DNA of 64,000 bases from Cliona cf. orientalis. Taxonomy: Eukaryota > Porifera > Demospongiae > Clionaida > Clionaidae. A model generated the notes under the pieces. The model had not been told where the DNA came from and searched no databases. It saw only the letters and a program-made list of their open reading frames with translations. Of the stretch, positions 118-57,719 are shown piece after piece; the stretch's first letter is position 1; each line of letters starts with the position of its first letter. The stretch lies in NCBI GenBank assembly GCA_963930775.1, contig OZ005689.1, forward strand, positions 9,002,854 through 9,066,853. The letters are read 5' to 3'. Both the position numbers and the translations under genes were made by a program.

Positions 118-1317
118 ATGGATAATTATAGTGTGACGTTATCGCGTAAAGTATTGGTCTACCTATGTTACGGTATCCTTATCATTCTTTCTTTGCAAAT
201 CAGAGCTTCTCTGAGCTGTGCTATCTTCAATTACGCAATTTATGATTCACAATCAAACGCCATAAAAGTGGGCTGGGAACTTCGTTCAGATGATGATCAT
301 TGCCAGCAGAATGGCCCGTATAATGTAACTGTTAGCAGATGCGATGGAGGAATACACAATTTAATGACATCTGCTATGAGAGACAACAGTGGGCACATAA
401 AAGTTCTGATTAATCATAACTTATGTGGATCGCAGTGTACGATTCAATTTCAAGGGTCTGAAGTATGCATACTGTTCCTAAACATTTCTACAGACAGTAA
501 GTTAAGATAATAGCATGCCAGTTAATTGCTATGATTGTAGCTAATACGAATATTGAATTCTTAATCATAGATCAGTTGATGTATCACTGTGGAGGCGAAT
601 GTATTCCAATAACCAATGATGCTATATCCTGTACACGGCATAACATCGAATATTACTCAAATTCAACAGGAATATTTGAAAGTTGCAATCCAATATCCAA
701 CGACACGTGCATAACCAACTTAGAGAATTGTTTATCACAAGCGAAAAATGGAGTTCTTCTGATAGGACTTTGCAGTTACCGGGTGACGCAACCTCTTCGT
801 CAACAGTCTGAGATTAAGTGTGATTCAGAAGGAAGAAATACCTGGCTAAACAGTTGTACTACTCTCGTTGTATTACAATCACAAAGTTTGCTATACAATA
901 CAACAAATCCGAGTGAGTAACCTTAATAGTCTGTGTATATATTAATGTGTGAATTCATTATATAATTTAGATTGTATAACTAACCAACCAACAACTCTCG
1001 AAGTAACTACTCCTGGACCACCTGATCTTATAACTACTGATCCTGCAACTACAAGGAATGACATGGAAACATCAGCTACAACGGACATAAGCAACCAATC
1101 AGCTAGTATTGTGGCAGATAACTCGTGTATGTATATTATTTCAGCTATTACAATCTTTGCCATGGTGCCAAATGGATGGTCAGAATCTATATTCACCCTA
1201 GCAGTGTTAAGTGGATACTATTTACAAGGTAAATCTATAATATGCTACAGGTGTAAAAGCAGAAAGATGAATGGCAGGGATGGCAGCATAGGGACGGCAA
1301 GGCTAAAAAGTACATGA
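118..1317 (+). CDS. FN3-like type I surface protein, 3 exons
   Basis: Exons 118-496, 571-912 and 971-1317 join in phase 1 to give 355 codons. The start is the first ATG and opens a signal peptide (hydrophobic core YLCYGILIILSLQI, residues 15-28). Residues about 35-125 look fibronectin-III-like (VGWELRS strand, Cys-rich). Residues about 127-240 form a second Cys-rich module with CGGEC near its start. A Thr/Pro-rich stalk (TTLEVTTPGPPDLITTD) follows, then hydrophobic segments near residues 295-325 and a short basic tail (CYRCKSRK). The layout matches the FN3-like receptors at 33515-34897 and 50843-52538. The 3' end is the least certain part: the hydrophobic stretch is broken by VPNGW, and a small intron from 1128 or a GPI-type ending cannot be excluded. 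No function is assigned beyond membrane glycoprotein. Confidence 0.6.
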
Positions 1318-4300: not shown

Positions 4301-4858
4301 GTGTGGTCAGGGAACCTGGGATGTGGTCACATAAATATGTATGATCTGACAAAAATTTAATTTTTAAAAGTGCACGTAGAGCAGAGGTAAAAAAGGTTAC
4401 GTAGCGCAACCGTAGCGTAACCAGCCACTACGCAAGGTACTGATCTCCAGAGTACAGAGTACCCTGCCAAGCTTGCACAGTGAAAGACAGCAATTGCATG
4501 CTTTGCATGATTTCAACATTTAGCTAGCTAGTCATACTTCTACTCAACGGACTCACCACTGGTCACAGTAGGCTATCAACTATCGTGCTACGTAATTCTT
4601 GCCTTTAGCTACATGTACTATACTTCTGCTGATCTGACATTCACCTTGTATAATATTACTTAATAGCATGCAATCGTTATTTAATCAATAGAGCATCGCC
4701 ACAGCACAGTACAGTATTGCTGGCCTAGTTGCAACATGTAGACTATTATAATAGTTATAGCAATAGCTTTTGCAATCCACCAAGGGTTTTGCAAGATCTG
4801 AGTGCTTCATTATTACTTGTATATGTGTGTATCAGATAATAATACAAAGTATATACTG
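1318..4858. other. intergenic, no supported gene
   Basis: About 3.5 kb of AT-rich DNA between two convergent genes. I see no exon chain on either strand. It holds a dispersed repeat fragment (1961-2060) and a local duplication of the segment TACATTTGGCATATTGCGGT at about 2600-2620 and 2677-2696. The recurring palindromes TAGCTAGCTA and AATAATATTATT also occur here. Confidence 0.5.
1961..2060 (+). repeat. dispersed repeat copy (partner at 15110-15208)
   Basis: The stretch with AAAAATTTGGGGTGGAAGC, then ATGAGTGGGCGTAT, then GCCAAGTTC and a GGAGAAT(A/T)TCTTT ending recurs with mismatches inside the inverted-repeat element at 15092-15370. This copy is probably a fragment of that element family. 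A 128-codon open frame crosses it, but nothing suggests a gene. Confidence 0.55.
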
Positions 4859-6056
4859 CTATTGATGAGCTGTCCATGAATAATTTTCAATGTGACCATA
4901 GGCCGGACTGTCAGTCATCTTCATTGTTTTTATATCTCCATAGCTGCAGTTGATTTCCATATTAATGGCTGTTGGGTTTACACTGTTAATAACTTCTCCT
5001 AGACCATTTATTTCTTCATACACAGGTTCATTTTGCTCATTTGGCTCATAGCGTTTGCTTGACATGTGCTTGAACAATACAATGGCTGTCACTACGGTCA
5101 CAGTGACCAACAAACAAGCTACTATTGTACTCATCACACTGATAGTGATTATCTGCACTGTGATAGTTATTATAACATGATAATAACAACACTCTTACTA
5201 TTATTATACTAGCCTCAATCCCAGGACACTCCAGCCCAATTAAGTTTATCATTGTTGCACGCAGTGCAGTGTCCTAGAAATGAGGCTATACTATTACCAA
5301 TGTTAAGCTTCGTAGATCGTGAGGTTGATGATACTGATACCGTAGGCACCACGAGGCTCTCTGACCGCTCTGAGTAGTTTACTGATGTACCGGAACTGCT
5401 GGTAGTGACAAATAATGTCACCATTGTAGGTTTCAGAGTTGGACATGCTGAAAGGAGATGCAATACTAAGCTAAATATCAGTTAATATGCACTTATTTAC
5501 TCATCATGCTTGAGCTACGTATTCATGTATACCTATATTAGACACATTATCAGGTGCTACCACAGTCAGAACTGCTCTGTTGCTTTCAAATTCCATGACC
5601 TCACTCTCCAATGAGATTCGGATTATACAAGAGTAATTAGATTGGTTGTTAGATGTATCTATCCTGACAACCAATCCTGTTGCATTTTGCCTGTGATTAG
5701 GTGGGAGTCTAGATGCTGACCAAGTTCGTTCATTGATCCTCCATGATACAGATTCTGAATAAAATGACTCTGCAGTGTTATTGTATTCACATGGAAAGAA
5801 CACTTTTTGCCCATTTACTGCACAGACATCTTTTGGTTCAGAGGAGAACACACCAGTAGAATCTGATGTCTCAACAACTAGTGAACGATGAGAAATTATT
5901 TAATATGCCCAGCATAATAATATAGATAGCAAGAAATACCAATAGATGGAGATATGCCACATAAAATTTTGACAACATACCTCCACAATAAAGTGAGCAT
6001 AAGTACATCGTCAGAAACACAAAGTTAGTTATCATAATTAAACTTTGAGCTTCCAT
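4859..6056 (-). CDS. single-Ig receptor with ITAM-like cytoplasmic tail
   Basis: Exons on the minus strand are 6056-5981, 5877-5533, 5447-5298 and 5157-4859, all joined in phase 1, 289 residues. The chosen ATG at 6056 gives a clean signal peptide (MEAQSLIMITNFVFLTMYLC). The Ig domain spans residues about 30-136, with Cys in FPCEY, Trp in VSWRI, the LPPNH signature and Cys in NYSC. A Ser/Thr-rich stalk covers 141-190, and the membrane span is about 192-219. The tail carries YEEI (237-240), YGDI (263-266) and YGHI (277-280). YGDI and YGHI are separated by ten residues, which fits an ITAM (YxxI/L-x6-12-YxxI/L). YEEI is the classic Src-family SH2 ligand form. Role inferred: signalling adhesion or recognition receptor. 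An ATG further upstream (6170) is in frame but would bury the signal peptide. Confidence 0.8.
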
Positions 6057-7899: not shown

Positions 7900-10800
7900 A
7901 TGTCCTCTACCAACCTGATCGTGAACTTGCTTTTGTTACTCCTTGCTGTACTGGCCTTTCCCAGACTGATCACTTGTGATCGAAATAGGACATTGTTTGC
8001 CACAATTATTATAGTGCTATGTGGAAGATTTCACTCAAGTTATGGTATGTTTTTACCTTAACATCCGTTAGTGTACAGTATCACCATTAAGCATTAATGT
8101 TTTTATGGCAGGCCTACAATTTGGAGAAAGTGATTTATTTGTTAGAGAAGGACCGACTTCACGTTCACTTGCAATTCAAAGGCGAGACATATCTGGTTCT
8201 CTTGAAATAAAAGTTTTTGCAAGCACGATTACTGAATACAGAGAAAATCATGTTGAGATGGGATGTAATCTTACCTTGAATGATCTTAATATCCAAGAAT
8301 CACAGCTAGATCCTGCTGAAGGTAATTTTTGTAGTAATATAATCAGATTCTTTAGAATTAATTTTTATTCCGTTATGCTCAGACACTGACCTCAAAAGAT
8401 TTGAATATGATGTCAAGTTTGATGCTAATGTTCGTGAAGTATACATCGATGTTGAAGTATACGATGACCAATTATCAGAGAAAGAAGAGTACTTCATCCT
8501 ATCCCTAAACTATACAGAACATGCAACTGATCGATGTGCAATTGCTGTCGGCATTATGGATAATGATCGTAAGATAGAGAATACCTAACAATAATATTCA
8601 TCATTAACAATAATAATATTATTATTAATTTTGCTTAGGCCTGATATTCAATTTTAGTACAAGCCAGGCCATAATTGATGAAAATGCAGGAGAGTACTTG
8701 AACCTATCCATTGTCAAGACTGGAGAAAATGAACCAAATGTCACTGTTCAAATTGCAGTTAGGGAATTGCAAAAGGGAGTTGAAGGTGAATACTTAACAA
8801 AGTGTAATATGCACACATGCATAATAAGGCAATAATTAAATGAAATCTTGAAATCGGATACCTAGTATAGCCTAGAGAAACCTCATTGATTACGTCACTA
8901 CAATTGGTCTATCTGTAATCATCATCTTATTATATGTAAAACTTCTTAGCACATCCCTATTATAGAAGTATTCCTTATATTGTGATACTTTATCTCTGTA
9001 TAACCTAACAGTTGGTAGATAAGATTAATTACGATTCCTGGATGATGATTGCTATGCCTCCTTTGAATGCAGGAAGGGATTTCGATTTATTTGAAACTCA
9101 CTATGTTTTTGATAATGAAACCAGTGAGCAAATAGTGCGAATTCAAGTTTATGATGATGACAAACTTGGCATTGAGGAGCAATTCGAGCTATATTTCCCA
9201 TCACAGACAGGAAGCCATGATGTGCAGCACATTACCCTGACACCTAGTAGTGTGACAGTGATCATTCAAGAGGATGAAGGTATGCCATTAGCAAGAACTA
9301 GCATAACAACGCGGCCGGTGAAGGAGCGTTGATCTGAGTATGTGTGTATATCAAGGGCGGCGGAAGTGGTATGGCTGGTGTGGCTTTTGCCTTACCACCT
9401 TTTTCATGGATAGGCAATGCCATACCAGATTTTTAATAGCTGCTGCCGCTATGGCACTAATACTTTCCTGAACTTGAAATGCTGTAGCTTGGCTATAGCA
9501 ATGAGCAGGTCATGTCTTTTGATTCCACTAGTAGCTAGTATTGCCACGGTCATGACAGACGCAGTTTGGCTTGAACATGAGGCCAATGATTCGCGACTTA
9601 CCCTGCTATGCCCACTTTTCTCATAATATTAAAGCTCGTTCATTTAAAGCATGTTTATGATGTTATACTGTGCCTTTGTAATGGTAGGCTTGCCACACCA
9701 CTATTCGCAACCTTCTGCTGCCCCTGTATATCAACTACTTACTAATCATACAAGGATAACAGTAACCTAAATCTGTATAAACAATCTGCTAGCATTTATT
9801 TGCACCCCTATAGAATTTCATGGACTCCCTGCATAATAATTACAATTAGCTATAGCTAGCTAGAAAGCTACCACAACTATAATACTGTCAAATTAAGCTT
9901 GTCCTTATCTGAGCATGTCATTGAATAATTGTTCCTATAGTTTATGCATCCCCTTTTTTAATGCTTTTAGTTGCTGTGGTTGGATTTACAATGGCTGGAG
10001 ATGCGATGCTCCAAGAGGGAGGTGGATCTGCTAAAATTTGTGCTGGCTTTGATGATGAAGATATGGATGGAATAGAAATTGACAATGGGGTTGACTTCAT
10101 CTTTATAGTAGCTGATTTGTCACCCATTACTCCTGGAACAGGACACGGTAATTACTGTTAAGAACCTGCCTAGAATTATGTCAGTCCATGTATTATTTTA
10201 TGTGGTTAATGTGTATTGATAATACATATAATATTAGATTTAATACTGAAACCTTCGAACACGTTATACATCTATGAGCATGCACATGAAGATTGTCTGG
10301 AAATTTCAAGTCCCTTCGACACAAACTTGAATGAGTCAATGCATCTACTGTCATTGCAAATCAGGGGTACATCAGTATCAAGAAGTAAAGTCGTTTTCTC
10401 TCGTCAATATTTAAAGGTTTATATTGCAGATTATCATGGTAAGTGAAAGTTTGAGTTTATAATATAGCAAGGTAGTACTCTTGTTAATGGTACTTTTTAT
10501 GTATACATACAGGGCTGGTTTTTATTTCAGAACCAAGCAATATCACGACAGGCATGGGAATGGATGTCCATTTTGACTGTAACTACATTGGAACTCATGC
10601 TAGCCCACTGTGGACAATCGCACACCCAACAGGAACAATAAGAACTGTATCTGCAGCCAGATTACCACGTAATCATTTCTCAACAGGGAAGGGTCTATCA
10701 ATCAGAAATGTGGATGAAAGCCACAATAGGACATCATATGCTTGTCACTTTCAAATTTATGATAGAGATCAAGTTGTACGAATATCTAGTCGTGAAGGAA

Positions 10801-12109
10801 CATTGATGGTGTTGGATACCATTGCATTTGACATCCAGTTGAGTAGTGGAAGCAATTATTTTGATCATTCTTTAGCTCATCAGATAATCGAATTGTTTCG
10901 TGGTGACGAAATTCCATCAATGACCATCAGAAAGTTTGGGTATTCTGCAGATACTTTTATTGTTATCGTAAAAATCAAGAGCTTCAATGATGATCGTTGT
11001 AGCACAAGTAAGACAGTATACATGTTACAGTAATTGTAATATTAATTTTTTATCTGTAGTTGTTACTTCTTTAATTTTTCTCATTCATAGCAGTCAGAGA
11101 GCAAGTGTTATGGTACGCTTTTGATACACAAACGTATGAGCATACGTTACGTGATACAATGCTTGATGAACTGCCACATTCAAGCAACTATCTTGTTGAG
11201 ATCATTGATCCAGTAAGCAGCATTGAGATGAGCGGTGCCCATGTTCTCGTTCCGGAACCCATACATGTTGATATTTTTGATAAACACTGTAAGAGATAAG
11301 TAATTGTGTCAGCATAATGATGGGTAGTATTATTTATTCATCAATGTTACAGTTTCTGTAGGGTTCACTGAAGAAAATATAAGCCTTCAAGAAGGAATAA
11401 TGGGACAAATCTGCTTGACAACATACGATAAGAAAGTCCATCAGTCCATTAGTCTAAATTTTACCCTTCAATCACTGGATAGCATTGAAGGTATAATACA
11501 TTTATTTATTACTCCCACATCTATTGTACACGATAACCATTATAATATTAATATGCATACACAGGTTGTGTACTATTTGAGCAAAATTTCATTGTGCTCA
11601 ATTCTACAAGTGCAATTGGATGTACCACTGTCTCAAAAGGAACATGTGACGGTGATCTTGAGATGAACGTCACTGTAATGGCTACCTATGAAGATGTGGG
11701 GGAGAACAGTGTGACTGTCACAATGCTTCAACCATTCCTCAACATAACCTTAAGTAAGCATTTCCAGTGTCCCTTTACTTTAGTGTAATCATGATAATCG
11801 TATTGTCATATCAGCAGCTACTACTGACAACGCTGATCCAGGAGTACCTGTGGAACTTCTTATTACTTCATCTCTTGCGGTTCTTTTTTTCTTAATGTGT
11901 TTTATAATAGTGAGTATACAGTCTTAATATGACCACTCAATGACAGCTGCTTTAAAATTCTTTCATAGATTATCATCGTCGCCATTTGTATAATAGCTCG
12001 CTACTGTCGATCAAGGAAACGTAAATACACAGTCAATGACCGTGGCACCAACATTGTGGATAGCGGGACCATGCAAAGTGTCAGAAGCACACAAAGTTCT
12101 CATGATTAA
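7900..12109 (+). CDS. Calx-beta x3 / Ig transmembrane protein, 13 exons
   Basis: Exons: 7900-8044, 8112-8321, 8383-8568, 8639-8785, 9019-9279, 9971-10147, 10238-10438, 10531-11007, 11091-11288, 11353-11490, 11565-11753, 11815-11909, 11969-12109; 854 residues. All junctions are phase 1 except the last, which is phase 0. The signal peptide has a poly-Leu core. Calx-beta-type repeats lie at residues about 49-180 (ending AVGIMDND), 181-316 (INYDS, VYDDD, VIIQEDE) and 317-442. An Ig domain follows (443-540; FDC, LWTI, LPRNH, SYAC). Next come about 240 residues of unrecognised ectodomain, a membrane span (about 786-818) and a basic tail (RYCRSRKRKY) rich in Ser/Thr. Calx-beta domains bind Ca2+ in Na/Ca exchangers and occur in integrin beta-4 and sponge aggregation factors. 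It is paralogous to the 28708-33399 gene. The acceptor at 9018 was chosen over 9011 because only it keeps the frame. Confidence 0.82.
9347..9734. mobile_element. hAT-like non-autonomous element in an intron
   Basis: The segment is bounded by TATATCAA at 9347-9354 and again at 9727-9734, an 8-bp target-site-duplication candidate. Its ends are imperfect inverted repeats: left GGGCGGCGGAAG...GTGTGGC, right GCCACACCAC...CTTCTGCTGCCCCTG. The right end, read inward, begins CAGGGGCAGCAG, a hAT-style terminus. About 370 bp with no coding capacity. The left tip seems to lack the first two or three bases. Confidence 0.6.
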
Positions 12110-15600: not shown

Positions 15601-18600
15601 CCCAAGTGGTACAATACTTCTAGACAGGTAATTGCTCATAAAATCAAAATTGTCAGACTGTTTATTATTGTGAACTATGCATCATTACAGAGATTGCAGT
15701 GCTAACTCTTTCTTTGTCCCTGTTGGTGAAGTTAGGGAATGTGCAAATATGTGTGAAAATGTGACCATGTGTGGACCAGTGTTTGCCATTCCCGAACAAC
15801 ATCTTAAGGTTAATCTGCACTAATACAAATAAAAAATTCCAGAGCACCATAATAATATTATTAGTATGCAATTAGATTTTTTTGCTACCTAAACCTACTA
15901 ATTAAAATATTCCATGAAAATAGATCAGTATAGTGTTGTCAATACCCTCTGTGGCCTCCTCTTATGTATTATAATATTATGTCTTCCTATTATCCAGCGA
16001 TGTGTAGAATGTAATGGCTCGCCTACTAATTGCAACACTCGACCTGGAAGTACAGATGGCAGTGGCGTTCCTAATGCCGATATCATTGTTTATGTTAGTG
16101 CCACTACTTTGGGAGGGTTTTGTTCTGGAGGTACTATTGCTTTTGCTGGTGCTTGTCAGCTTGAAAGCACCCTGGACAGGTATATACTATCTAAGCCTTA
16201 CAATTGGTAGATAAATCAATGGAGCTTGAGCTAGTGTGGAAAATCTCTATCTCTTACTAATAGCTAGCTAGTAGCCCTTTACTTCTCATATTTTCTAATT
16301 ATTAACTCTCACCTCCTGGAGAGGTGTGTCGGCTCTATAGCTACTTCTACCCAATGCATCATGATCTGGGCCTTGTTTATTCAACTTTGTATTTTTAGGC
16401 CGATTGCAGGATTTGTCAATTTCTGCCCAAATTTTTTTACTCTGAGTGAGGGAGAAAACATTCAAGTGGCTCTGCATGAGCTCACACACGTCTTGGTAAG
16501 TACTAATTAGAATAAAATCAATAGAGCCCACAATAATGTTACTGGTTCTGTTAGGCATTCAGTTCATCGCTTTATCGCTTCTACCGAGATGAAAATGGCA
16601 TACCACGTACACCACGTGATGTAAACGGAATCCCACCATCTGCTCCAAGCACTAGGTCAGTGTATCATAATCTGTGCAACAAAGGTTATCAGTTTGGTGC
16701 CAGTTTTTAGATATATAGCTAGAACGAACACTTTAATAGCTTTAATGTAATAATATGCCATTATTAAAGAAATAAAGAAGATGATGTAGTGATACTTGCA
16801 TTCTCCTGTGTCTGTTAACTCAATTATACAGCACGGTTGCTACCGTTACATATACTGACTGGCTGACACGGAATGGTCCGATCGAGAGGAACGTCAACAT
16901 GTTGGTGACACCAAATGTTATTGTAAGTCTCAGTTTTGGCTGTTCACAAGAGCTAGCTCAATGTCATAACAAAGATCCCTGGGGGAGTACACAAGATATT
17001 TATTATGTCCATCATAGTATAATCATAGTCTAACTTGTGTGCATGGCCTCCACCAGGACCATTTCAATGTTGCGATTAATGGTCCCTCCCCACCTACTCT
17101 AAAAGCTATAGGCATCTTTCTTACTATGTATTCGCTAATGCATAATATCATTATGTCATGCACCATCTCTTGATACAGGAGCAAGCCAAGATTCACTATG
17201 GATGTGATGATATTATCGGAATGGAGTTAGAAAATCAAGGAGGCCCTGGAACTATATTTTCTCATTGGGAGCACAGAATAGTTGGGGTATGTTTGTAGAT
17301 CGAGATGATCATGATCATAACTGCTTTAAAGGGCCTTCAGGCGCCTATAGTCACCGGGAATCATCCACACATTTCATTAATCTTGTATAAAGTGCCTATG
17401 GTGTTTGTATAGGATTCTTATCATACAAACAATTGTATTAAAATTAATAATAATCTGACAATCACAATTTAAATTATTATTGTTCCGTGATCATAATAAT
17501 GTTATTACAGAATGAAGCAATGGGCGGATTCTTTCTCTTTGTTGGACCATTTTCACGGATGACATTCGGTCTGTTTGAAGACTCAGGGTATGTATTAATT
17601 ATTAATTATTTTGACTTTGTAACACATCTGGGGTATTTATAATTAATGCAGATGGTATGTTCCTAATTACGAATTTGCACAAGAGCTTGCCTGGGGCCGA
17701 AACAGAGGCTGCAGTATTCCTCATGGAAGCTGCGCTGAGCACATCCAGAACCAGCAAGCAAGGTTAGGCCATCATTAAAATAATATCATATTTAATTAGT
17801 GACACAGCTATTATTAATTTCATTCTATTCAGCCAACGTACATTGTCTCCATTCTGCAATGTTCTTCAAAATGTTGGGCCTCCAGTCAGGACCTGCAGCG
17901 TCGATAGAGATCTATTTACTGAGTGTAACCTCATTGAATTCCTCCCACCTGAACAAGTTCCACCAGAGTTTCAAGTATATACTATCTTCTATTCTATTGT
18001 ATATTATACCAATGTCACCAGGCTGCTATCATGATACAATGTCATGTCACTGGTAGAGCCCTTGCATGGTTCTTACCACAAGGAAGTATGTAGACATACA
18101 TGATTGTATGAACCAAAAGGGAAACGGAATTTCCTCGGATACTCCATTAACTTGTATCATAACTTTGCCTCCCTATGTTAAGCACAATTATTTATTTCAG
18201 TATTTCAACGGTGGATTCAATTTTGGATCTGATGTTGCACCTCGTGTAGGAAGCAGCTTTACACCAACAGACTACTGTCCTTTTGCTAGTCCTTTCTCAG
18301 TGAGTTATGCATAATAATATTAATTATTGTGGCAAGGTTTTCTAAGTTAGATTTGACATAATATTGCATGGAACTTGCAACTTTAATTCTATCACCAGTA
18401 TGCTTACTATAACACTGCCACCAAAATTAGTATGTAAAATCCTTAACTAAATTTTTATTTCTAGATTGACATTCCACCTTCATCTTGCTCCAACCCGATG
18501 GATGCACCGGGGGACAACATTGCTGGTGAGACATACGGCACTGGTTCACGCTGCATAGAGCATGGACAGACCTGGACTAGAACATTAGCTGGTGGACAGG

Positions 18601-21600
18601 TTGACACCTACGATATTGGCGTTGGCTGCTATCAGGTAGATGGAACATAATATTAATATTATTACTGCTAGTACATAATTTAAGGTAGTGGGAGATTTTC
18701 TTATAGTGCAAATTTTGTATTTTCACGTTAGGGGATGTTCTGTAAAAGATTTGAACTTGAAACTTTTGCATACTTCTTGACTTTACAACATGCAATATTT
18801 GATAAGCCTACCCAGAGACTAGTCCTTTAATCACACTAGAGATTTTTGGGGTTGACCAAATTGTGAATGTCTGAATATCAAGTTAGATTGTCTTTTAGTT
18901 GTTACTCTTGTTCTGGTTTATCATTACTGTAGTATTCCTGTTCACCACTTGGAGTGGAAATTCATCTGTTGGGTTTTCGATATCTTTGTTCCTGTGAAGG
19001 AGAAGAGGTACCTAACTGGTATAATAATGTTTTGACTATGTAACATTAACTGTTACATCAATAATTTTCAGCTTTTAATAGACCAGGATATTGATGGCAT
19101 TCGCTATCAAGGCTCTTTCATCTGTCCCTCTTGCCTCACCCACTGCTTTGTAAGTTAACAATAGTTCCCAGCAATGAGCACAATCATAATAATTCTAAAA
19201 TTGTGTATAGGATGAGCTAGAAAACTGCCCCGACCCAGGTGAGTTTTCACTTTGATATTGCTTTTGATTTTAATAAAACTTTCTCCTCTATTTTACAGAG
19301 CCTAATGCTTGTCCTGGTCAACAGACACTTGCAGGTATTACAACTACAATTGTGTATCATGATTTCTATTACACAGTATATGAATGTTTTGCCTCTTACT
19401 TTATTTGTCTGGTACAAGATGGTGAAATTAACCTATTACTCGCAACTTATTAACATTTACACAATGAGATAAACAGTGCACAGTATCACAGGCACACATT
19501 TGATAGAAAGGAAGACATTGTGGCACTTCTAGTGCAATAAATGAATGTGAATAGTGTCATTGATTATTATTATGATTATGCTTACAGAGCCACTTCCAGG
19601 CAACAGAGTGCAATGCTTTCTAATGTATGACTCTGGGTCTTGCTCAGCACTTCTCAGACCATCCATTTCACCCTTTCAGTGCTGTGTTGAGGATGGGGGG
19701 AATGCCTATCGAACATCATACGGCAATTGCGTCCAGTGTCCCAATAACAATAGTAAGACTTAGTACATTGTTTGCATATTTATTTTTTTGTTATTTATGA
19801 TTGTAATTTTGTTATAGTAGCTAACTATCATGTAGCCTAATTTTTTTTACAAGCTTTAAAAAGGGTATTGCTTAAGGGATACGAATGGTTCATTATTTTA
19901 TTAATTCTAAGTTTATCATTAATTTTTGTTGTTAATTACATTCTTTCAACCAACAGACGATGTGATTGAGATTACCCCTGAACGTGACACCTATAGCATC
20001 CTTGAAGGGAACGATTTGGAAGTGTGTATCATTGTATTGTCCCAATCAATTATGATTGAGTTTGAAGTCATTGTAGATATCTATCATAAATGTAAGTCAC
20101 CCATGGAAGATGTGATAACAGCATTCTTGCTCATTGATATCATGAAATTGTATGCTGTTAGTGGTGGTGTAATTGTGCAGCAGTGCAAACTGTTGCTGCA
20201 CGTTCAATAAACCACAGTTTAATACTATATTCAGCTGCAAAAAGTGGTTAATTAGCAGCTTGTTCAATACCTGTATATAGCTACAATTATCATGACCTTA
20301 TTAAGAAAGAATGCTAATAGAGCAGTACTATATTATGCTGGCTGTAACTCTTCCTACTAATGAATGATCGTATCTTTAATTATTATTGATGTAGCATATC
20401 ATATTTGGACCAATATCACGGTGGAACCAGGCGACTTGAGAAGCTGTGCGAATCTCTCAATTCCAGACAACCTGTGTCTGGATAAAGACAAAGAATATCA
20501 AATATACTTCACAGTATTGAGCCCGCCAGAGAATACTACAATCAAATTTCAACGAAACACTTCTTGGTTGTTCATAGTTGATAACGACAGTAAGGGCTTT
20601 GCTATTAGCAATACAGGCTCAAATTCAAGTAACAATCACGATTTTTTTTACAGTTTTACAGATTGGATTTCAGCAGGATGTCTACGAAGTGTATGAGAAT
20701 GCTTCATTTGTTACTGTTTGTATTGAGCTACTGGAAGGATGTGCCTGTTGTCGTCCTGTGAATGTTAGGCTGTACACTGAAGATGGAAATGCTACTGGTA
20801 CGCTAATATTAATTTAATGAACGAAATGGAATTAATTTAAAGCAACCTAATTATTAAAATACTACTCTAGTCTAAGTTAATAACTATAATAATTACGAGT
20901 GCACAAAATACACTTGTTGATTAGAATCGTGATGGTGTCCATTGCTTTTAATACTTCAGATATTTTGTGGGTGCATAATGTATATATAAGATCTTTTTTG
21001 TCTTTGCTCTAGTTATCATTGCTTATATGCCTATTATGCAGCTGACGAAGATTATAACTCCACTTTGAGGATCTTATCACTTCCGGTTGGAAGTGAAATT
21101 GGCGATACCGTCTGCACATCAATCTATATCATAAACGACAATGAAACTGAGGAACTGGAGTACTTCTCTGTACATGCAGTGGTGGTCGATCTCAATGTTA
21201 AAGTAACAAGAGGAGAAGCTGTCATCAATATCATAGATGATGATATCCCAGGTTAATTAATAATATTATGATGAGATGCCCTTTACTATGATCCCATGCA
21301 AGAGCAGAATGATTATGAGCGTTGATTTGTAGCAATAAATCTCCTTTAGGAGTATACAATATAGTTACAATTATTGCTGTGCAGCTATCAAATTGGGTAT
21401 CAATATTAATTATTAAGCGTACTATTTGATTACTGCCTTATCTTAATTAAATTAAGTTAATTAAATACTTGTTCATGCAGAATTTGAAATTCAGTTCACA
21501 TCTGACACTCCGCTGATCAATGATCTCGATGTGTCACTGAGTTTCTCATCAACAATTCCTGTGGCTGAAGCTACGTGCAGCGTATCACCTCGCCTGGGCA

Positions 21601-23549: not shown

Positions 23550-23948
23550 ATAACTGACATAATAAAATGGAAAAATTAATATGAACAGCAATATTTTTGT
23601 CGGTAATTAATGAAACTGTAACTAACTGTTTATCATAATAATACTATTATACGATTAATGATTATTTTTAACTGTCATAATGACTCATAATACCTTATTA
23701 TAATTATTGTTTGTACTTGAAATTCTTTAACTTTAAATTTCGCCCAAAAATTGCTAAAAAAAAAAAATAATGGGAAACGAATTGAGAATGATAGGCACTT
23801 TCCTTTGTGGTGATATTTTTAGGAATTTTCAAAATTAATGGTGCACTAAAAAATTGTCTGTATAATAATAATAATATTATTATTATGACATTGTGGTAGA
23901 GCAGCTTTTGTGGTCCCAATGTACATCTTTATTGCTTGGGTATGTCTC

Positions 23949-27215
<3,267 letters not shown>

Positions 27216-36319: not shown

Positions 36320-39300
36320 TTAAACTGAAGCAGACTCATTATCTGTGTAAGAAGATGTAGCAATTAGGTAATAGTTATGCATAATTTTATTTCTGTATCT
36401 ATATACGCAGGATCCTTACCTGAGTCATACTTCATTAGCTTTCTTGAGTCACCATCATCCAGTGAATTTGTAACGCCACTAGGTGGATCAGACTGCTGAC
36501 TAGGACCACTTGTGGTATGAGAACGTTTGCAGCAGCTGATCATGACAGTGTATGATTGTGTAAATACATCCATATTTATTATTATTCAGCACAAACCCTT
36601 ACCGATAGCAATTGATGGCAATTATTATAAGACTGCTTATTATTACGATAGGTAAAATAACACCCAGGGCTATTGAAACTTCTGCATGAAGAAAGTAAAT
36701 TAATTGAAAGTCAATGCAGATAAAAATTGAATAATTTTCTCTTCACCATTGTGTTTACATGGGGGAGTTACTACATCCATGTTTTCTAACAAGCAGTAGA
36801 TATCTGAAGACTCTTGAGGAGATTCCCAGTATATGGAGACATTATAAGTTGTACCACACTTGAGTCCATTACTCAGTTGCACTGATTTCTCAACACTATT
36901 TTCATGGCATGCAATATCAATAATTTTGGAATCAACTGCAGCTTTCAACTTAAAATCTGATAAGTATCTTGACTGATTACAGGATATACTTAATGCTTGA
37001 TTTTCGGTATGAACTGATGAGTACTTTACTGCATGTGTAGCAAAATAATTATGATAATAATATTATTATGGAATGCTTTGTCTTGTTGATTTACCTGTTT
37101 CATTGATACAAATGCATATATCCCCAATAGCATCCTTGGAGTTGATGAACACATTTGTATCTACTTCACCATATTTATTAACTGCACTCACTGATACTAG
37201 GAAAGGTGCACATTCACTTGAATACTGATACAATATAGGATCATCAATGGAAACATCTGACCCAGTAGCAGCTAAAATATTACTTAGTATTGTTTCACCA
37301 GTGATGTCAGATACAAGAAAATGGTAGTAATCTGGTGGGTTTCCATTGTCATCATAAGGTAGAACATGTATCGTATTGGTTCCGTTGTCGATTATTACAT
37401 CTGGTGGTTCTGGCAACACTGAAAAATCACATCAATATGAGTGTGACAGTTATAATAATCACTGGGCCAGTTAGTTGTATGATATGTATCTCTAAGGCCA
37501 GGAAGCTAAAGCATGATTATTGCTCAAAACGCATGTGCAAACTACAATCTAGGGTATATTATGATATTGATCGATTATATAATCGACCAATATCATAATA
37601 TACCCTAGATTGTAGTTTGCACAAGTTAATGCACACATTATTGTGTTCTTATGAATTATCCCATATATGGGATAATTCATAAGAACACAATAATGTGTAC
37701 AGTGTTAATTCAGACTAAAATTAATGTTTGTAATTGATTACATTAGACAGTAATATTTTATCTTAGAATACCAGAAAGTGACATTATATGTGAATCGGTA
37801 ATTAAATTTATGTACATTAATGTATGTCGTGATAAAATTTACAATTAATGTTGCTCTTACCTATTGCAATCTCAAATGAATGTGTATAAATTCTGTATGG
37901 TGGTAGGAAATTCCTTGTGCAGAAGAATTCATGAAATATTGATAGGCGACTACCGTTCATATTCCTTGTTAAGTTCTTAATTTGAAAAGAGATTTTTTGA
38001 TCCTCAGTTAGGCAAAAATTAAAATAGGAGTTTTGAAAAACGGTGTTATTAAGACATGAGCAGCTTTTGAGGTCATAATATTTGCTATCTTCAGCAAATA
38101 AGACTGGACAGAAGCAATCTTCTTCAAATCCAGACCGTGGTAACACAAGATGGAAGGTAGAAGTTATTAGATTTGAAAAAGTAAATATTAGTGTTCTAGA
38201 GAGCGATGAATATAAATTCACCATAGTAGCTGTAATTGAAGAGTTTTTTTTAATTAAGCCAAAAATATTATCAATGTTTACCTGAATTCTGTATCTGAAT
38301 AGTTGCATCAGTCTTGTTGCATACAGAACCACCTTCGTTAAGTGCCTCTATTAGAATATCTGCCAGCTTTAAATCATCTTCAGCTCCTTGTATACTCAAA
38401 TCATTAAGTGGAATGTCAACGCTTTGACTCATGTTAACTGGCCATCTATTCTGTATCTGATTTGTTTGCCCACAAGTAGCTCTAGATATCACTTTGAAAT
38501 CGTCACACTGATGGTTTAGGATTGGTTTCCATGACAATGTTACATTTTGGTTAAGGAATGTGTTTTGATGATCTAAATAGAGATCAGTATTGTCCACATT
38601 AATTGTCAGTGGTCCACCTGAATAAAATGTTAATTATTGTTAAAAGCACATGAATTTGCAGTCTGTTATTTCATTACCTCTTGATGTAACAGTTAGGTAA
38701 CCGGTAGTACTTGACGTTACTGTGTATCCAGTACCACGTGATGCATAGCAGCGAAAGTAAATACCATTTAGGTCTCTTTGAACAAGTTTGATAACAATTC
38801 CCCCATAAATTGGCATGAATATTTCAGGTAGCTGCAATAGTTCAAATATTGACCCATTTACTTCCCATATTGGAGGAATGTAGCTGAACACAGTGCATGG
38901 AATGAGAACATCATGATCACCTTCTCTGTGGGTAATATTTCTGGGACCTAAATGCTGTCCACATGTGTCTGAGCAGTTACAAGATTTAATTGATTTTATT
39001 ATAGTAAAATTTTGATGGATAAAAATTTCACCTAGCCCAGCTACCTTTGTATTGCAGAAAATTAATGAAGATATATAATATATCCTACCTCATAATATAC
39101 TTTCACTATAGAGCCAAGTGGGCAACAAAAATCATAATTTGGCCCTTCAGGGGTACAAGGGAAATATGAGTCATAATTTGTCCCCTCAAGCAACATTATT
39201 GAAAAGTACACAGAATGAAGGGTTAATTGCATCATGGTAGCACGATACTGTAACAACTACAAGTTATGTCGATATATCTTCCATGCAATCATTCACATAG

Positions 39301-39850
39301 GACAAGAAATGACTGTGATAAAAAATTTGCTGATGAGAGCTGGAGGCGAAATTGGTGAAACTTTTTTCCTGTCTAAAATTTCCAGTTTTATGGTATAGTA
39401 TAGTAACTAATAATTATTATACTCACCAATGGTTAGTACTATTAGCTTTCCCACAGTACTTCGCAACTGACAAAAAGACCCATTAACAAACAAGCCAAAA
39501 AAACACTGGTAGGTGGTATCATTATCCTCTAGAAATACATTGTTCACAATCAGAGTGCGACCATCGTACATATGGTGAGGTGGAAGTTCCGATGACCTGT
39601 AAACAGTGGAGTTAATAAGCCACAAGGGTGCACTGGAAATTCCCCTGAAGTTACAATCCATCTTTAGTTGGTTACCAACACAAACAGTAGCATCTTGTGG
39701 TTGATCCACAAAACCAACACCTACAAATTTTGAACTATAATTACTATTATAGTCCATTACAGGTAACATACCATCTCTTGGTGGACAAAGTTGTCCTTGT
39801 GTTTGATGTAGAATCAGCGACACTAATAATAGATAGAAGTTGCCTGCCAT
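36320..39850 (-). CDS. two-Ig / FN3-like transmembrane receptor, 9 exons
   Basis: Exons (minus strand): 39850-39427, 38968-38678, 38617-38282, 38229-37861, 37418-37095, 37028-36747, 36681-36603, 36535-36420, 36342-36320; 747 residues. Junctions are phase 1 up to the membrane exon, then phase 2 and phase 1. Signal peptide MAGNFYLLLVSLILHQTQG. Ig1 is about 45-138 (MDCNF, PLWLI, LPPHH, YQCFF). Ig2 is 142-238 (IPC, PIWEV, FRCYA). Residues 239-350 (VTLSWKPI) and 474-581 (PEPPDV, FLVSVSAVNKYGE) look FN3-like. 351-473 contains the unnamed KNLTR module. 582-675 is a Cys-rich membrane-proximal module shared with the 53205 gene. The span is about 678-700, and the tail (CCKRSHTT...KYDSG) is 50 residues. 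No enzyme domain, so an adhesion or recognition role is inferred. Confidence 0.8.
37535..37622. repeat. 88-bp near-perfect palindrome
   Basis: Arms 37535-37569 (GTGCAAACTACAATCTAGGG...) and 37588-37622 are exact reverse complements. The 18-nt centre is itself nearly palindromic (TCGATTATATAATCGA). It sits in the intron 37419-37860 of the minus-strand receptor gene. Confidence 0.93.
37633..37698. repeat. 66-bp perfect palindrome
   Basis: Perfect inverted repeat with no spacer, centred on CCATATATGG, outer ends ACACATTATTGTG. It starts only 10 bp after the preceding palindrome, and its sequence is unrelated to it. Confidence 0.95.
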
Positions 39851-40996: not shown

Positions 40997-40997
<1 letters not shown>

Positions 40998-50842: not shown

Positions 50843-52538
50843 ATGAATAAGAAGGGATTCTTGCTGCTTTCACTTGTTATGCAGGTGGCCTACTGCAGCA
50901 GACAGGTCCAGGATTGCATTGATAGCAAAGTACACAACATAGATGTGTATGGTGTTTACTTTGATAACTGTTCAATGAGTATAAACTGGAAATCACCAGT
51001 GATCCAGGAGTGCAATGCCTCTGTATTACATGTTACAGTTAGGTTTGGAAAAGGTTGCTCACCAAATTTGAAGAATATTACACTGGAAAGCAATAAAACT
51101 AGTCTAGTGTTAAATGATGAAGAGATAGTTATGGCGTGTGCTACTGGTGAATACTACTTTCAAGTGATTGCAGAAGTTCAAATTAATTACTTGTCTCCTG
51201 TTCAGGAACTTATAAGCAGCTGTATAATGATAAGCGAATCGTACTATGAGACATTTCAGCTATATGGTATGCCTTTTAATAATGTTAAATCATGCCAGTC
51301 ATAATATTATAATAATTTATAATGTTAGCTAGCTACTATCAAACTATGCATGCTCATTAGAATGTTATAATTTATTTATTAGTATATGGGTTTTTTTTAT
51401 CTGTACAGCGTACAATTCATCAGAAATTGGTCAGGAAGTCTGTATTCCAATTCGATTGTGCTCTAATAGAGTATTACCAACATTTATCCTAAATGACACA
51501 GCAATTCCAGTTGATAGTGACAGAAGCAATGTATATTACATATCCGGAGGCAAATTTTGTTTTAGTCGATTAGAATCAAATGCTGTTCTCTATGAAACAT
51601 GCGTTGCACAATCTATATGCTCAGTGTGTTCAAATTATACTGGTAACATCACCATCATATCTAGATCACAACTGATGATATCCACTGAGAATGCAGGTAT
51701 AATGCAGATCATGCTGATTACTATTTATATTCATAATATTATTTTTGCTTAATAGGCAGTGATCCTCCTACAATTGCAAAAAAAGCTGATGAATTCTGCA
51801 ACAGTAAGTGTTTTAAATTATTAATAGTTATAATAAACAACGTTTAATTGCAAAATTATTATCAGTTCCTACAGTAATATTTTGTGGTAGCTCTTATATT
51901 CTATCAAACAACTCAACAACAGTGATAGTTTGCATATTTGTTCCATTCAATGAGTCTCAGACTACGACAGAGATTTCATTGCTGTATGAATTGAGAAATC
52001 AAAATAATTCATTGATCATGACTAGTAAGTACCTAAGTACTCATTCAAGTTTCATCTTTATCTTGAATACTCTTGTATTATAATAGCTAATGTAGGTTCC
52101 AATGTATCGAACAGTGTGGTTAGCAGGATAAGATTGGATTCAGCACAAGAACATTGTACTGAAATTGAATCTTTGGGCTGTGTCCAGAACAATACTTACA
52201 TAAGTGTATGTATAAAGGGTAATTCTACTAGAGACATGGTCTATGTGCCAGAGCCATGTAAATTGATTCAAATCATAAGGAATGGAACAGGTAAAAATTA
52301 TAACATAATAATAGTAGTTTTAATAATTTTGACTTAGCATATCTTTTCAGATGAATGTACCACAGTTACAGTACCAGACGCAAGCTTAAGTCTTTTCAAC
52401 ATCATCGCCATAACAATCAGTGTCACCTTTTTATCATTTTTTACGATATTATTAAGTGTTACTATAATATTCTGCAAACGAAAGGGGTATATCTTCAGAA
52501 AGTATTACTATAATCTAGTAAAGGCTGATGATAATTAA
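50843..52538 (+). CDS. FN3-like transmembrane receptor, 6 exons
   Basis: Exons 50843-51266, 51409-51696, 51756-51803, 51866-52024, 52096-52290 and 52351-52538; 433 residues, all junctions phase 1. The ATG at 50843 opens the signal peptide MNKKGFLLLSLVMQVAYC. Residues about 22-141 look FN3-like (MSINWKSPV, YYFQVIAEV). Residues 142-237 are the unnamed module shared with the 33515 gene (VCIPIRLC, FCFSRLES, ETCVAQ). 254-371 holds two further Cys-containing segments, the last (YISVCIKGNSTRDMV) resembling the same module. The membrane span is about 382-408, and the short tail has CKRKGYIFRKYYY. No classical ITAM/ITIM. It is paralogous to 33515-34897 in opposite orientation. The tail lacks that paralogue's tyrosine motifs, so partners may differ. 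Confidence 0.8.
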
Positions 52539-53204: not shown

Positions 53205-56200
53205 ATGATTCTAAATCAGAAATTGTCATTAGTGTCCTGCATTATCTCTTCAGTTGTCTTATATTCTGCTGCACAGAGATGTGAGCAGAGTCAAGGTAAG
53301 ACAAAATAAATCTTGTATGACGACAACATTATCAACCTGCATGCATGTTGTTAATAATAATGTCATTAATTTATTACTCCTATTATATTATTATAACTAA
53401 TAAGATGTTCCAGTTATACTTTCAAATTCTGAAGACAGATTTGTTACTGTATGCTTTGGGGGAACAGTAACAATCGATTGCAAAATTCAAGGAACAGATC
53501 AGCGTCCGTCATGGGAAATAAATTCAACAAGCTACACTTCTTTAACAAGATTACCACCACATCATAGGTTTAATGGTACAGTTTTGACTATTGAAAACGT
53601 TGATATGAGTTTAAACAACGTGACTTACCAGTGCTATTTTACTTCCCTTGATGATGATTTTGAATTTTGTCGTATTGAAAGTCATAAGACTACATTGACT
53701 GTATTACCCCCAGGTAAGTGATAGTGGCTATTATGATAATCATTAAAGGCAGCTTAATTCATGACAATAATTTTAGATACATGTGTATGTGAAACTGAAG
53801 ATAAGAAATTTTGCTCTTGTCTGAAAGATGGTGGTAATTTACTATAATTATTATAATTGTATTGTGTAAAAAAAAAAAAAAAAAACTCGCAAGGAGAAAA
53901 ACTTTACCAATTTCACCACATGCTCTCACTGCATGGTGAAAATCTTTTTCCTGTGTTATAAAAGATTACATTGAGCATAATATTATGATGATCTTTATTA
54001 CATTGGCTAACTGCTGTACAAAGGTAGCTGCATGGGCTTGGAGAAATGTTAGTATTTAGCCTTGAGTGCATCAGTGGAATCCCTCTTTTCTGGACATCCA
54101 GGATAGCTTAATTTCAAATCTGATTAAAGGAGGTAACCTCATTTCATGTGTAGTTTTAATTTGTACACTGTTCTATAGCTGGGACTATGCATGCATGGTG
54201 TCATGATTAAAAGAGATATTCTCACTTCAGGGGTGTCCTTATACGGGTTGCGCTGTATTTGAATTGTATGCAAGATGTGAACAAAGGAGAGATGAAATGT
54301 ACACCTCAACAAACTGCGACATGGCTATAACTTTATAGTATAATATTAATAAGTCGCTTCGAATGTACACCAATACTATGTACCTTCTCTTTTATAATAT
54401 CTGCTGTTGTGTGGGTTTATGCATGGTACTAATTGAAAGTATTGTATGAAGAAGTTTTCGAGGGAGAAAATTTTCGCAGATCAGTAGAAAGGAGCACATC
54501 ATGAAGAGAAATTTCACAGAATGTTATAAACTGATTGCATGGATGGGTGTGGCATTCCTAAAATTTTGTGAAGAAAATTTTTGCAGGCGGCTATAAAATC
54601 ACAAAATTTGTGAAGGTTTTCTCCCTCGAAAGTTTGAAATTCCCGCCATATACAGTATAATAACGTGCTTGAATGATTTTCAGTTGGTGCTGAATTCTCT
54701 ATTGATGACAGTGGCATGATGATGATATCCTGTCAGTCGCATCTTTCAACCAACATATACCTTAAAATTGAAATAGAATCTAACGCAGTCAGTAATCACT
54801 ATGTAAACAACACCTCTTGTATCAATTATTCAGCTGCACACCTTGTGAATGACATCTGTGCAACACAATATACTTTGTCTGCCACTTTGATTTCAGCTGA
54901 TGCTTCTGCTACGAACATTCACAGCAAATGCCAACTGCATAGTATAAATTTCTCCTCATCAAAATGTCAAGGTATTATAATGTGTAGCTATAACTGCAGC
55001 ATATTTGTACCATTAATAATTTTTTTAATTAGTTCTCTTCTTTGACAGCACCATAATTATAACACCATGCATTATGCTGGACTGAGTGTAAATTTGTACA
55101 ACCTAGCATCAATTTAATTACTCCATAGAAATTAATCGTGATTGAAGACATGTTTTCCTTACCTAGTTTTGAGTTTGACAACTAGATCTGCGGGGTTCTA
55201 GAGGGAATAATAATATTATTATTATTATCTTGAATGTATATGACATAAATATACAAATGAATAATAATTGTTTGCTGGGGAAACTGTGCATGAAAGTGAG
55301 ACCATGCACGCCCTGTTACAACCTCAAATTAATAAAGAATCATTAATTAAGTATACCATAGTTCGGGTTTTAATCAGTGTGAGCATCTAGCTATTAGCTA
55401 ATTATTGCGAATTATGAGTTTTTCCATTAGCAAAGTATTATTATCATAACATGGGCAGATCTAGGGGGCGGGGTTGCAAACCACTCCCCCAAATGATTTT
55501 GAGCAGCCCCTCCCACTTACTATAGGTCGGCATAGTAGCTGCCACTGTATGGTCAGCAGACAAACTGTGTAGTAGTACATAATTGGCCTCAAAGCAACAG
55601 GTGGTTAGTGTAGCCTTGTCCCAAAGAGAGCCTGGGGACGAGGCTGGTGGTTAGTGGTACTACACCCTTAACATAACATCGCTTCAGCTATGAAAAATCT
55701 ATTGCAAACCAAGAGTCAGCTGTGGTACCAGTCGCTCTCTGGGGTGCGGGCATAGGTGATTAAAAGTGGGCGCGATTGCAACCCAACCCCGCTTCGTGTG
55801 CATTATATAATACCTACAACCCCAGCGAATTCGCATTCCCAGGCAAGGTATCTCTGAAATTAATTCTGGAATGGACTGGTGTAACTAGAATGTTTGTGGG
55901 ATCTGTATGTACGTTTGTATTCTTGAATTTACAGGTTTGACCTTTTGCACCTTCCATATGCAAAGTTTGTACTTTTGTACCCTTGAGTTTGTATTTATCC
56001 TACATTTTGAGCTTGAATTTGATAATTTTGGATTGCCATATTTAGATGTTTACATAAAAGTAGGAAAATTGCCATTATTCTGTCATGGGAAGATTTTACG
56101 TGACTTCTCCCTTGGGTTAATCATGGGAAGATTTACGTGCCTTCTACCATGACCTAATCATGGGAGGATTTAAATTTATGTCACATGTAAAGTATTCCCA

Positions 56201-57719
56201 GTGTTTACAATAAATTTTATATGGGAAGATTTTATGTAAGATCAAAGTTCTTACGTAAAATCTTACCATGTAATACTTATTTACCAACACAATAATCAGG
56301 GGGTGATTTATATGTATGAGCTCTGACCTCATGTAAAATCTCCCCAGATGTATACAAGGTATAGGTATGTGGGCTGATAATACTGCAACAACACATGGAC
56401 TTTAACCTCACGTAAAACCTTCCCATATATATAAACAATTAAGCAAGTATTATGGGATGGCATTAATGCCGGCAAAAGATATGCTGGACCTTTGACTCTG
56501 TTTATACAGTTGAGAGAAGTAATGGAGATATAGGAAGATTTTGCATAAGAATTTTGACATTATAGCTACTTCTAATCAATCTGCAGGGCCTCGTATATAG
56601 CTACCCAGGTGCTCAAAAAAGCGGCGGGGTATGAAGTTAATAATCTATCAAGCTTGTAGTCATAGCATGCAGTGATGACCTGTAACCTACATGTACCTAC
56701 CTCAATTAAGAACACTTCACGAGCAAGTCAAAGTGCGCCTAAATTAGGGAGGTGCCTAAGCGCTGCAATTAGAATGGTTCTGGACGTTTTGCCAGAGCTC
56801 AAGCGCTATCACTAACCAGTACTATTTAGTGACAGTGAATATGACAGTGGCGAGAGCAACAAAATATGGTTCTAGTTTCAGTAATTTTTTAGAAGTTTCA
56901 CTCTGCATGATCGCTGAATCATGCTCGAGTTGCTGGTACCCTAGCCATCAGAACGGTTGGACGAAGACGACTGAAATAGCAGTGAACAACTTTGTACCCC
57001 GAAGCAAAAGTTTTTGAAGAGCACAATTATCTACATTAAGTGTCTCCTGATTATTGGTAAATCAGTATTAGCTACATAGAAAGATTTTACGTAAGAACTT
57101 TGACCTTATGTAAAATCTTCCCATATAAAGTAACAAATGTAATCACCGGGAATACTTCACATGTGATGTAAAATCCTCCCATGGTTAGATCATGACAGAA
57201 GTCACGTAAAATCTCCCCATGATTAACCAAAGGGAGAAGTCACGTAAACTGATCTTCTCATGATAAAATCATGGCAGTTTTTCTACTTTTATGTAAACAC
57301 ATGCACAAAAATTATAATAATTATTATCATGCAGGAGGAAAAATGAAACCACGACGTGTAGCAGGTGTTATAGGAGGAGTTTGTGCTTTAATATCCGTAA
57401 CTGTCACAATAATAATAATTGCAAGTGCATGCTTCATTAAACGGCGTTGCCGAGATTATTGGAAGTGAGTATGGTTATTGAGTTCCACAATGTATGAATG
57501 TCATTTAAAAACCTACTATTATTTCCCAATTGTTACAGAAATAGAAGTGCTAGAAATATCTGTCGAAAACATATTTGCAGAAAAATGGATAATTTTATAC
57601 AACAACGAAGAAGAAATCATGAAGTTTCCCAAAATAGAGTTTCCCCAAACGATATACCAAATCCAACAATATTACAATGTTGTAATTGCTGCAATTTCTC
57701 CTGCCAAAATCCCAAGTAG
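53205..57719 (+). CDS. Ig / Cys-rich transmembrane receptor, 6 exons
   Basis: Exons 53205-53295, 53414-53713, 53777-53833, 54684-54971, 57335-57464 and 57539-57719; 348 residues. Junctions are phase 1 except the last, which is phase 2. Signal peptide is residues 1-23. Ig is 31-130 (TIDCK, SWEIN, LPPHH, YQCYF), closely similar to Ig1 of the 36320 gene. 131-149 is a small Cys cluster (TCVCET..FCSC). 150-245 is the membrane-proximal module also seen in that paralogue (MMISCQSHL). The span is about 254-279. The tail is strongly basic (RQ..QRRRNH) and ends in a Cys cluster (CCNCCNFSC). The 2.4-kb intron 54972-57334 contains a 1.25-kb inverted-repeat element. No ITAM. The Ig exon has no internal start, so it is easily missed by simple ORF calling. 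Confidence 0.78.
56047..57299. mobile_element. 1.25-kb element with long inverted ends, intronic
   Basis: Left end TGTTTACATAAAAGTAGGAA..., then CATGGGAAGATTTTACGTGA and CTTCTCCCTTGGGTTAATCA. The same order appears inverted at the right end (57130-57299, closing CTACTTTTATGTAAACA). Arms are about 150 bp, imperfect and internally repetitive. The interior has no recognised transposase. A solo end lies at 46275-46455. It lies in the intron of the 53205 gene. Confidence 0.7.

What the first reader, a model, noticed from the sequence alone, without database searches (positions are those of the whole stretch)
118..57719. Cluster of modular Ig / FN3-like / Calx-beta membrane receptors: candidate recognition locus
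Seven single-pass receptor genes and one Calx-beta protease lie within 58 kb, built from a shared kit of exon modules and arranged as inverted paralogue pairs. Known: Hydractinia allorecognition genes are clustered Ig-type membrane proteins, and sponge aggregation factors carry Calx-beta domains. Inference: this could be a sponge self/non-self or aggregation receptor complex that joins the two themes.
Basis: partly seen in the sequence, partly recalled or inferred. Interest (0 to 1): 0.88.

Follow-up and report, generated by a model that had tools for sequence, protein, structure and literature searches.

The report
Sponge receptor cluster with shared tails
This stretch of a boring sponge's chromosome 1 holds part of a larger cluster of cell-surface receptor genes; several have different outer parts but a similar tyrosine-bearing inner tail, so they look like recognition receptors, but whether they tell self from non-self is untested.

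Summary
The genes are real: seven single-pass receptors (B, C, E, F, G, H, I), a doubtful one (A) and an M8 metalloprotease with a Calx-beta domain (D). Chromosome lengths identify the genome as Cliona cf. orientalis, chromosome 1. C and F are colinear, oppositely oriented Calx-beta/Ig paralogues (30% identity, E 1e-32). 'FN3-like' was not confirmed.

Receptors with different ectodomains share a cytoplasmic tail, P-x-Y-x-E/T-I ... C/S/N-P-A/S-Y. A divergently transcribed Ig pair recurs at three loci on two chromosomes.

Verdict: a coherent, probably signalling receptor complex; allorecognition is an open minority hypothesis, testable with the deposited alternate haplotype.

The parts
118..1317 (+). 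Gene A: secretory-type start, Thr-rich stretch; membrane anchor doubtful
   Evidence: Gene finder, 4 exons; no Pfam family for its module 501-917
4859..5863 (-). Gene B: Ig module (5546-5863), stalk, TM, tail with PVYEEI, SYGDI, SPAYGHI (tail 4862-5032)
   Evidence: Open spliced model; Ig in alignment A1; tail homology
7900..12109 (+). Gene C: signal peptide, Calx-beta x2, Ig, further unassigned beta-type modules, TM, short tail without the tyrosine motifs; 11 exons
   Evidence: Calx-beta E 2.2e-12
15914..21251 (+). Gene D: M8 (leishmanolysin-type) metalloprotease with HELTH, then Calx-beta; exons probably continue to about 23549
   Evidence: Peptidase_M8 E 1.4e-32, Calx-beta E 9.3e-13
28746..33399 (-). 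Gene F: signal peptide, Calx-beta x2, Ig, modules, TM; inverted paralogue of C; 9 exons, C-terminal end uncertain
   Evidence: 30% to C over 310 aa, E 1e-32; 8 of 8 introns phase 1; Calx-beta E 2.9e-9
33518..34771 (-). Gene E: FN-like module, C-rich module, stalk, TM (33717-33821), tail with PFYETI, NEAYLSL, NCPAY (33518-33670); not a closed splice model
   Evidence: tail homology
36420..39850 (-). Gene G: signal peptide, two Ig domains (39427-39736, 38678-38968), unassigned modules, TM 36603-36681; C-terminal exon uncertain
   Evidence: Open 9-exon model; Ig domains in A1
50843..52538 (+). Gene H: signal peptide, FN-like and C-rich modules, TM, short tail; paralogue of E
   Evidence: 6-exon closed model; domain alignment A3
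53404..57465 (+). Gene I: Ig (53404-53718), second module (54677-55042), TM (57253-57465); not a closed model
   Evidence: Ig 41% to G

Best explanation
The window is part of a receptor gene complex of about 430 kb on chromosome 1 of the demosponge Cliona cf. orientalis, with a sister complex on chromosome 10. Its genes encode single-pass receptors with divergent Ig or C-rich ectodomains. A subset, spread over both complexes and C13, carries a related cytoplasmic tail with tyrosine motifs (P-x-Y-x-E/T-I and C/S/N-P-A/S-Y). Most likely mechanism: ectodomain contact with a ligand on another cell or microbe leads to tyrosine phosphorylation of the tail by a Src-type kinase, and SH2/PTB adaptors carry the signal on. 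C and F are a Calx-beta/Ig adhesion-type pair without that tail, and D is a neighbouring metalloprotease that could cut extracellular targets. Shown: genes, modules, paralogy, clustering, tail similarity. Inferred: phosphorylation, adaptors, ligand class, any link between D and the receptors.
For: Gene models and domains. Ig profile. Union of three Ig queries: 28 places, 16 on C1 in 427 kb, 9 on C10 (8 in 84 kb), 2 on C9, 1 on C13. C-rich type from C10: 4 places at E<=0.01, two on C1 in or next to the window and two on C10. Tail: 6 of 10 pairwise alignments beaten by 0 of 2000 shuffles; an HMM of five tails finds further tails downstream of Ig receptors on C13 (E 0.0018), C9 (0.01) and C1 +160 kb (0.058); single-query search from the C10 tail hits C10:7617899 (1e-7), 7607759 (0.0015) and 7784239 (0.003). 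Recurrent divergent pair with tree support 99/96 and 98/94.
Against: Single-sequence genome searches with the B tail and the J tail find only themselves (one further J row at E 0.4), so cross-chromosome tail similarity rests on the profile and shuffles. The other 4 of 10 tail pairs are beaten by 18, 101, 18 and 169 of 2000 shuffles. The C9 and +160 kb tail hits are individually weak; the next, non-family hit has E 0.095. C, F, H and A lack the tail, and G's DPAY lies beyond a strong splice donor and is not counted. Gene models come from a home-made gene finder without RNA evidence. No relative in another species was found (database content for sponges unknown).
Confidence: 0.6

Rival explanations
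1. Allorecognition (histocompatibility) complex: one or a few of these receptors are highly polymorphic and decide fusion or rejection between sponge individuals, as Alr1/Alr2 do in Hydractinia.
For: Same gross anatomy as the Hydractinia complex: clustered IgSF single-pass receptors with low mutual identity (PMC11067881); here paralogues share 20-44% with the first Ig; partial or interrupted Ig copies on C10 (two TAA in 7778738; truncated 7772534).
Against: No polymorphism data. No recent duplicates of receptor exons among the 26 best DNA self-matches of the window. Ig clusters are common in this genome.
Confidence: 0.12
2. Innate recognition of microbes or symbionts: lineage-specific pattern-recognition receptors with tyrosine tails, without a self/non-self role.
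For: Diverse ectodomains on a related signalling tail; the host carries bacterial and algal associates (PMC12639293, passages); Ig-containing sponge genes respond to microbial patterns in other sponges (PMC8242945, passages).
Against: No ligand, expression or induction evidence for these genes.
Confidence: 0.25
3. Ordinary adhesion or developmental receptors that are clustered only because of old tandem duplication.
For: Old divergence without recent expansion in the window; many Ig clusters elsewhere, one of which encodes receptor phosphatases; Calx-beta and Ig are common adhesion modules.
Against: The tyrosine tail recurs under different ectodomains, which argues for a shared signalling job.
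Confidence: 0.2
4. Aggregation-factor receptor complex: the Calx-beta receptors C and F, trimmed by D, bind the secreted aggregation factor.
For: Calx-beta domains in C, F and D.
Against: Calx-beta is widespread here (165 matches), and the strongest arrays are on another chromosome (C19).
Confidence: 0.05

Closest known systems
Hydractinia allorecognition complex (Alr gene family)
   Same: Clustered IgSF single-pass receptor genes of low mutual identity, with pseudogene-like copies (PMC11067881, section 17 read).
   Different: Here many modules are unassigned or Calx-beta; two complexes on different chromosomes; polymorphism and function unknown; no Alr sequence was compared.
Sponge aggregation factors (Grice et al. 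2017; paper not held; from citing passages and recall)
   Same: Calx-beta domains in C, F and D.
   Different: C and F are TM receptors with two Calx-beta each plus Ig, not secreted array proteins; the genome's strongest Calx-beta arrays are on C19.
Vertebrate ITAM/ITIM immunoreceptors (recalled)
   Same: Single-pass Ig receptors in a cluster with cytoplasmic tyrosine motifs; B has Y-x-x-I-x10-Y-x-x-I.
   Different: The strict ITAM or ITIM consensus is not met by the other tails; the shared motif is P-x-Y-x-E/T-I plus C/S/N-P-A/S-Y.
Leishmanolysin-type M8 metalloproteases
   Same: D: HELTH motif and Peptidase_M8 E 1.4e-32.
   Different: D carries a C-terminal Calx-beta domain.

Membership tests
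Immunoglobulin superfamily (I-set-like) | Ig-fold sequence profile with Cys-Trp-Cys core | tested here: met
   G21, C28, W39, C78 invariant in 16 copies; PDB profile hits, best 1.2e-27; singly below Pfam cut-offs where shown
Calx-beta domain proteins | Pfam PF03160 above gathering score | tested here: met
   C 47.5, F 37.4, D 48.7 bits against cut-off 27
Peptidase M8 | Pfam PF01457 above gathering score, HExxH zinc motif | tested here: met
   113.6 bits against cut-off 21; HELTH in 16268-16507. Catalysis not tested
Fibronectin type III | Pfam FN3 match or FN3 fold | tested here: inconclusive
   No FN3 match for modules of A, E, H or full H and G; structure model of the E/H/J first module too poor (pLDDT 46.7)
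Ig fold for the E/H/J C-rich module | Ig-like fold | tested here: inconclusive
Alr-type allorecognition complex | Cluster of single-pass IgSF receptors | tested here: met
   and gene models
Alr-type allorecognition complex | Exceptional polymorphism of ectodomains | not testable with these tools
   Only the primary haplotype was held
Alr-type allorecognition complex | Genetic control of fusion/rejection | not testable with these tools
   Needs grafts and crosses or association
Alr-type allorecognition complex | Sequence homology to Alr proteins | not tested
   No Alr sequence was fetched; Huene et al. 2022 not held
Sponge aggregation factors | Secreted, no TM, long Calx-beta arrays | tested here: not met
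   C and F have a TM segment, two clear Calx-beta domains and an Ig
Sponge aggregation factors | Wreath domain (recalled) | not tested
   No Wreath model or sequence was at hand
ITAM receptors | YxxI/L-x(6-12)-YxxI/L (recalled) | tested here: inconclusive
   Met by B (YGDI-x10-YGHI); not seen by eye in the E, J and C10 tails
ITIM receptors | (I/V/L/S)xYxx(I/V/L) (recalled) | tested here: not met
   Position -2 is P, C or E in the Y-x-x-I/L motifs of B and E read by eye

The most novel reading that the evidence does not exclude
The chromosome 1 and chromosome 10 complexes are a sponge histocompatibility system: an immunoreceptor family with a common tyrosine tail under exchangeable Ig or C-rich ectodomains, organised partly as divergently transcribed receptor pairs, whose polymorphic members decide fusion or rejection. 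It would be an allorecognition complex of tyrosine-signalling Ig receptors in an early-branching animal, independent of the aggregation factors.
Probability: 0.12. Interest if true: 0.92.

Novelty: new variant of a known kind. Interest (0 to 1): 0.56.

Why it matters
Sponge tissue recognition has been known from grafts for decades, yet the receptor genes are not established. This gives a bounded, named candidate region in a public assembly with deposited alternate haplotype and RNA reads, a tail signature that defines family members, and a clear test. Even if it is not allorecognition, tyrosine-tailed Ig receptors in a clustered arrangement in a sponge bear on how old immunoreceptor-style signalling is.

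Tried and rejected
Aggregation-factor reading: rejected as the main one (C19 arrays). FN3: not confirmed. C-rich module as Ig: suggestive only. Structure of the first E/H/J module: uninformative. Cross-species relatives: none from the G and C models (6324 and 7617 candidates, none at E<=0.001); the third protein search was not used. PDB profile searches with the C-rich and FN-like alignments: 0 hits at E<=1. dN/dS was not attempted: window paralogues are too diverged and the C10 copies are partial or interrupted. A binomial figure for clustering is not used, because tandem duplicates cluster anyway. The first gene-finder run over-predicted and was discarded; over-split. F first looked frame-broken until another acceptor was tested. 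Literature listings showed no paper on such a sponge locus; subscription papers are mostly missing from that library.

Full report
Origin. The window is C1:9002854-9066853 of a held assembly of 216.8 Mb in 149 contigs. Six contig lengths seen here (C1 37,495,003; C9 9,894,826; C10 9,786,199; C13 8,925,284; C19 7,221,352; C15 8,350,398) equal, after rounding, chromosomes 1, 9, 10, 13, 19 and 15 in the table of the Cliona cf. orientalis genome note (37.5, 9.89, 9.79, 8.93, 7.22, 8.35 Mb; PMC12639293, passages). The published total is 217.17 Mb in 307 scaffolds, so small scaffolds seem absent from the held copy. A recalled silicatein-type signature has 4 hits, three of them in 5 kb of C12, with 0 in the reversed control.

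Genes. ORF listings and a home-made splice model give A+, B-, C+, D+, F-, E-, G-, H+, I+ along the window. C and H close from start to stop; F and G are open through 9 exons with uncertain last exons; B is open from Ig to stop; E and I are exon sets. C and F have the same order: signal peptide, two Calx-beta, Ig, further beta-type modules, TM (30% identity over 310 aa, E 1e-32). D is an M8 protease plus Calx-beta; M8 is otherwise rare, with 7 exon matches at three other places. Introns are phase 1 in 29 of 31 cases over C, F, G and H, as expected of module shuffling. Signal peptides and TM segments were read by eye.

The Ig subtype. Sixteen copies from the window and fetched loci share G, C, W, C and usually an LPxxH stretch and match Ig structures by profile. 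Searching the genome with three window Ig exons gave 14, 18 and 10 rows. I dropped three rows that align only to query residues 6-43, outside the Ig (C9:5529365, C19:1012244, C6:9105050). The union is 28 distinct places: 16 on C1 between 9.008 and 9.436 Mb, 9 on C10 (8 between 7.694 and 7.779 Mb), 2 on C9, 1 on C13. The C-rich module from C10 finds 4 places at E<=0.01: itself, another C10 place, gene E, and gene J just right of the window.

Control. The canonical Pfam Ig_3 model scored 150 of 1805 candidates; none of the 150 lies at C1 9.00-9.44 Mb, the nearest being C1:9467082, and large clusters exist elsewhere: 17 of the 150 lie in 171 kb of C15. One of these, read from 4.5 kb, looks by eye like an Ig receptor tyrosine phosphatase. 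So an Ig cluster by itself is not special in this genome, and the window's Ig genes are a diverged subtype.

The tail. B, E, J (C1 +74.9 kb), and two C10 genes have similar cytoplasmic tails: P-x-Y-x-E/T-I, then C/S-P-A-Y in four of the five, the fifth being read only in its first part. Of 10 pairs, 6 are beaten by 0 of 2000 shuffles, the other four by 18, 101, 18 and 169. An HMM of the five finds, outside its training rows, a partial C10 copy (E 6.6e-5), C13 (0.0018), C9 (0.01) and C1 +160 kb (0.058); the next row is a repeat region at 0.095. The last three lie downstream of an Ig exon and a hydrophobic segment on the same strand and read EPVYEQI...ECPAY, NEAY...NPSY and NDAY...NPAY. Single-query genome searches are weaker: B and J tails find only themselves at better than 0.4, the C10 tail finds three more places, all on C10. 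C, F, H and A lack the motif; G's DPAY follows a strong donor and is not counted. The reading that these bind Src-type SH2 and PTB domains is inference from recalled motif preferences.

Divergent pairs. At C1:9161282(-)/9162140(+), C1:9369957(-)/9370711(+) and C9:8251093(-)/8252334(+), a minus-strand Ig exon of G's second type faces a plus-strand Ig exon of G's first type within 1 kb. In a tree of the 16 Ig copies the minus members group with G's second Ig (99/96), and the plus members of the first C1 pair and the C9 pair group together (98/94); C1far_p is a long, unplaced branch. The first C1 pair and the C9 pair thus look like one duplicated unit. The order of B(-) and C(+) in the window is also head to head, at about 2 kb.

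Against allorecognition and aggregation. No receptor exons pair among the 26 best DNA self-matches of the window (E<=5e-7): the paralogues are old. The 16 best of 165 Calx-beta matches are on C19; whether these are aggregation factors was not tested (no Wreath model). Polymorphism, expression and conservation in other sponges could not be examined; the protein database gave no relatives.

Comparison. In Hydractinia, Alr genes are IgSF single-pass receptors of low mutual identity in clusters, with many pseudogene-like models (PMC11067881, section read). Gross anatomy agrees; defining features (polymorphism, control of fusion) are untested here. Sponge Ig genes with adhesion or immune roles are mentioned in reviews and transcriptome papers (PMC11999971, PMC8242945, PMC8380372, PMC5450542; passages only). 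I found no description of this complex in the listings.

Verdict. A real, coherent receptor complex, larger than the finding and shared between two chromosomes, probably signalling through tyrosines. Self/non-self recognition is possible but not favoured by the evidence at hand; the alternate haplotype of the same individual makes it testable at once.

Noticed in passing
L045 (C15:8041800-8046299); array C15:7.886-8.057 Mb: Tandem Ig array; the one member read looks by eye like an Ig receptor tyrosine phosphatase (HCSAGVGRTGTF). A possible partner or rival for recognition studies.
   Followed up: partly
C19:0.15-0.45, 1.1-2.2, 2.97-3.0 Mb: Large Calx-beta arrays, aggregation-factor-like in appearance.
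   Followed up: partly
L022:247-1149 and a second copy about 5 kb on: Tandem secreted proteins that look by eye like aerolysin-type beta-pore formers; Pfam finds no family.
   Followed up: partly
L022:7408-8085 and copies at window coordinates about -38.3 and -27.1 kb: Tandem secreted proteins with HSEIQ and PCxxC motifs; weak below-cut-off match to a deaminase family (E 0.018).
   Followed up: partly
C1, window coordinates about -26.1 to -24.4 kb, minus strand: Coiled-coil TM protein that looks by eye like the nuclear-fusion protein GEX1/Brambleberry.
   Followed up: no
23943-27196: GC-rich minisatellite of 9/18-bp units, open over long stretches in several frames, between D and F.
   Followed up: no
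59391-61609: 190-bp tandem repeat, about 11.7 copies.
   Followed up: no
47320-49080, minus strand: LINE-like reverse transcriptase ORFs (RVT_1 E 8.8e-26).
   Followed up: no
C10:7772534 and C10:7778738: Truncated or stop-interrupted recent copies of a C10 Ig exon, 87-97% alike in DNA.
   Followed up: partly
C12:3669638-3674600: Three silicatein-like signatures in 5 kb.
   Followed up: no
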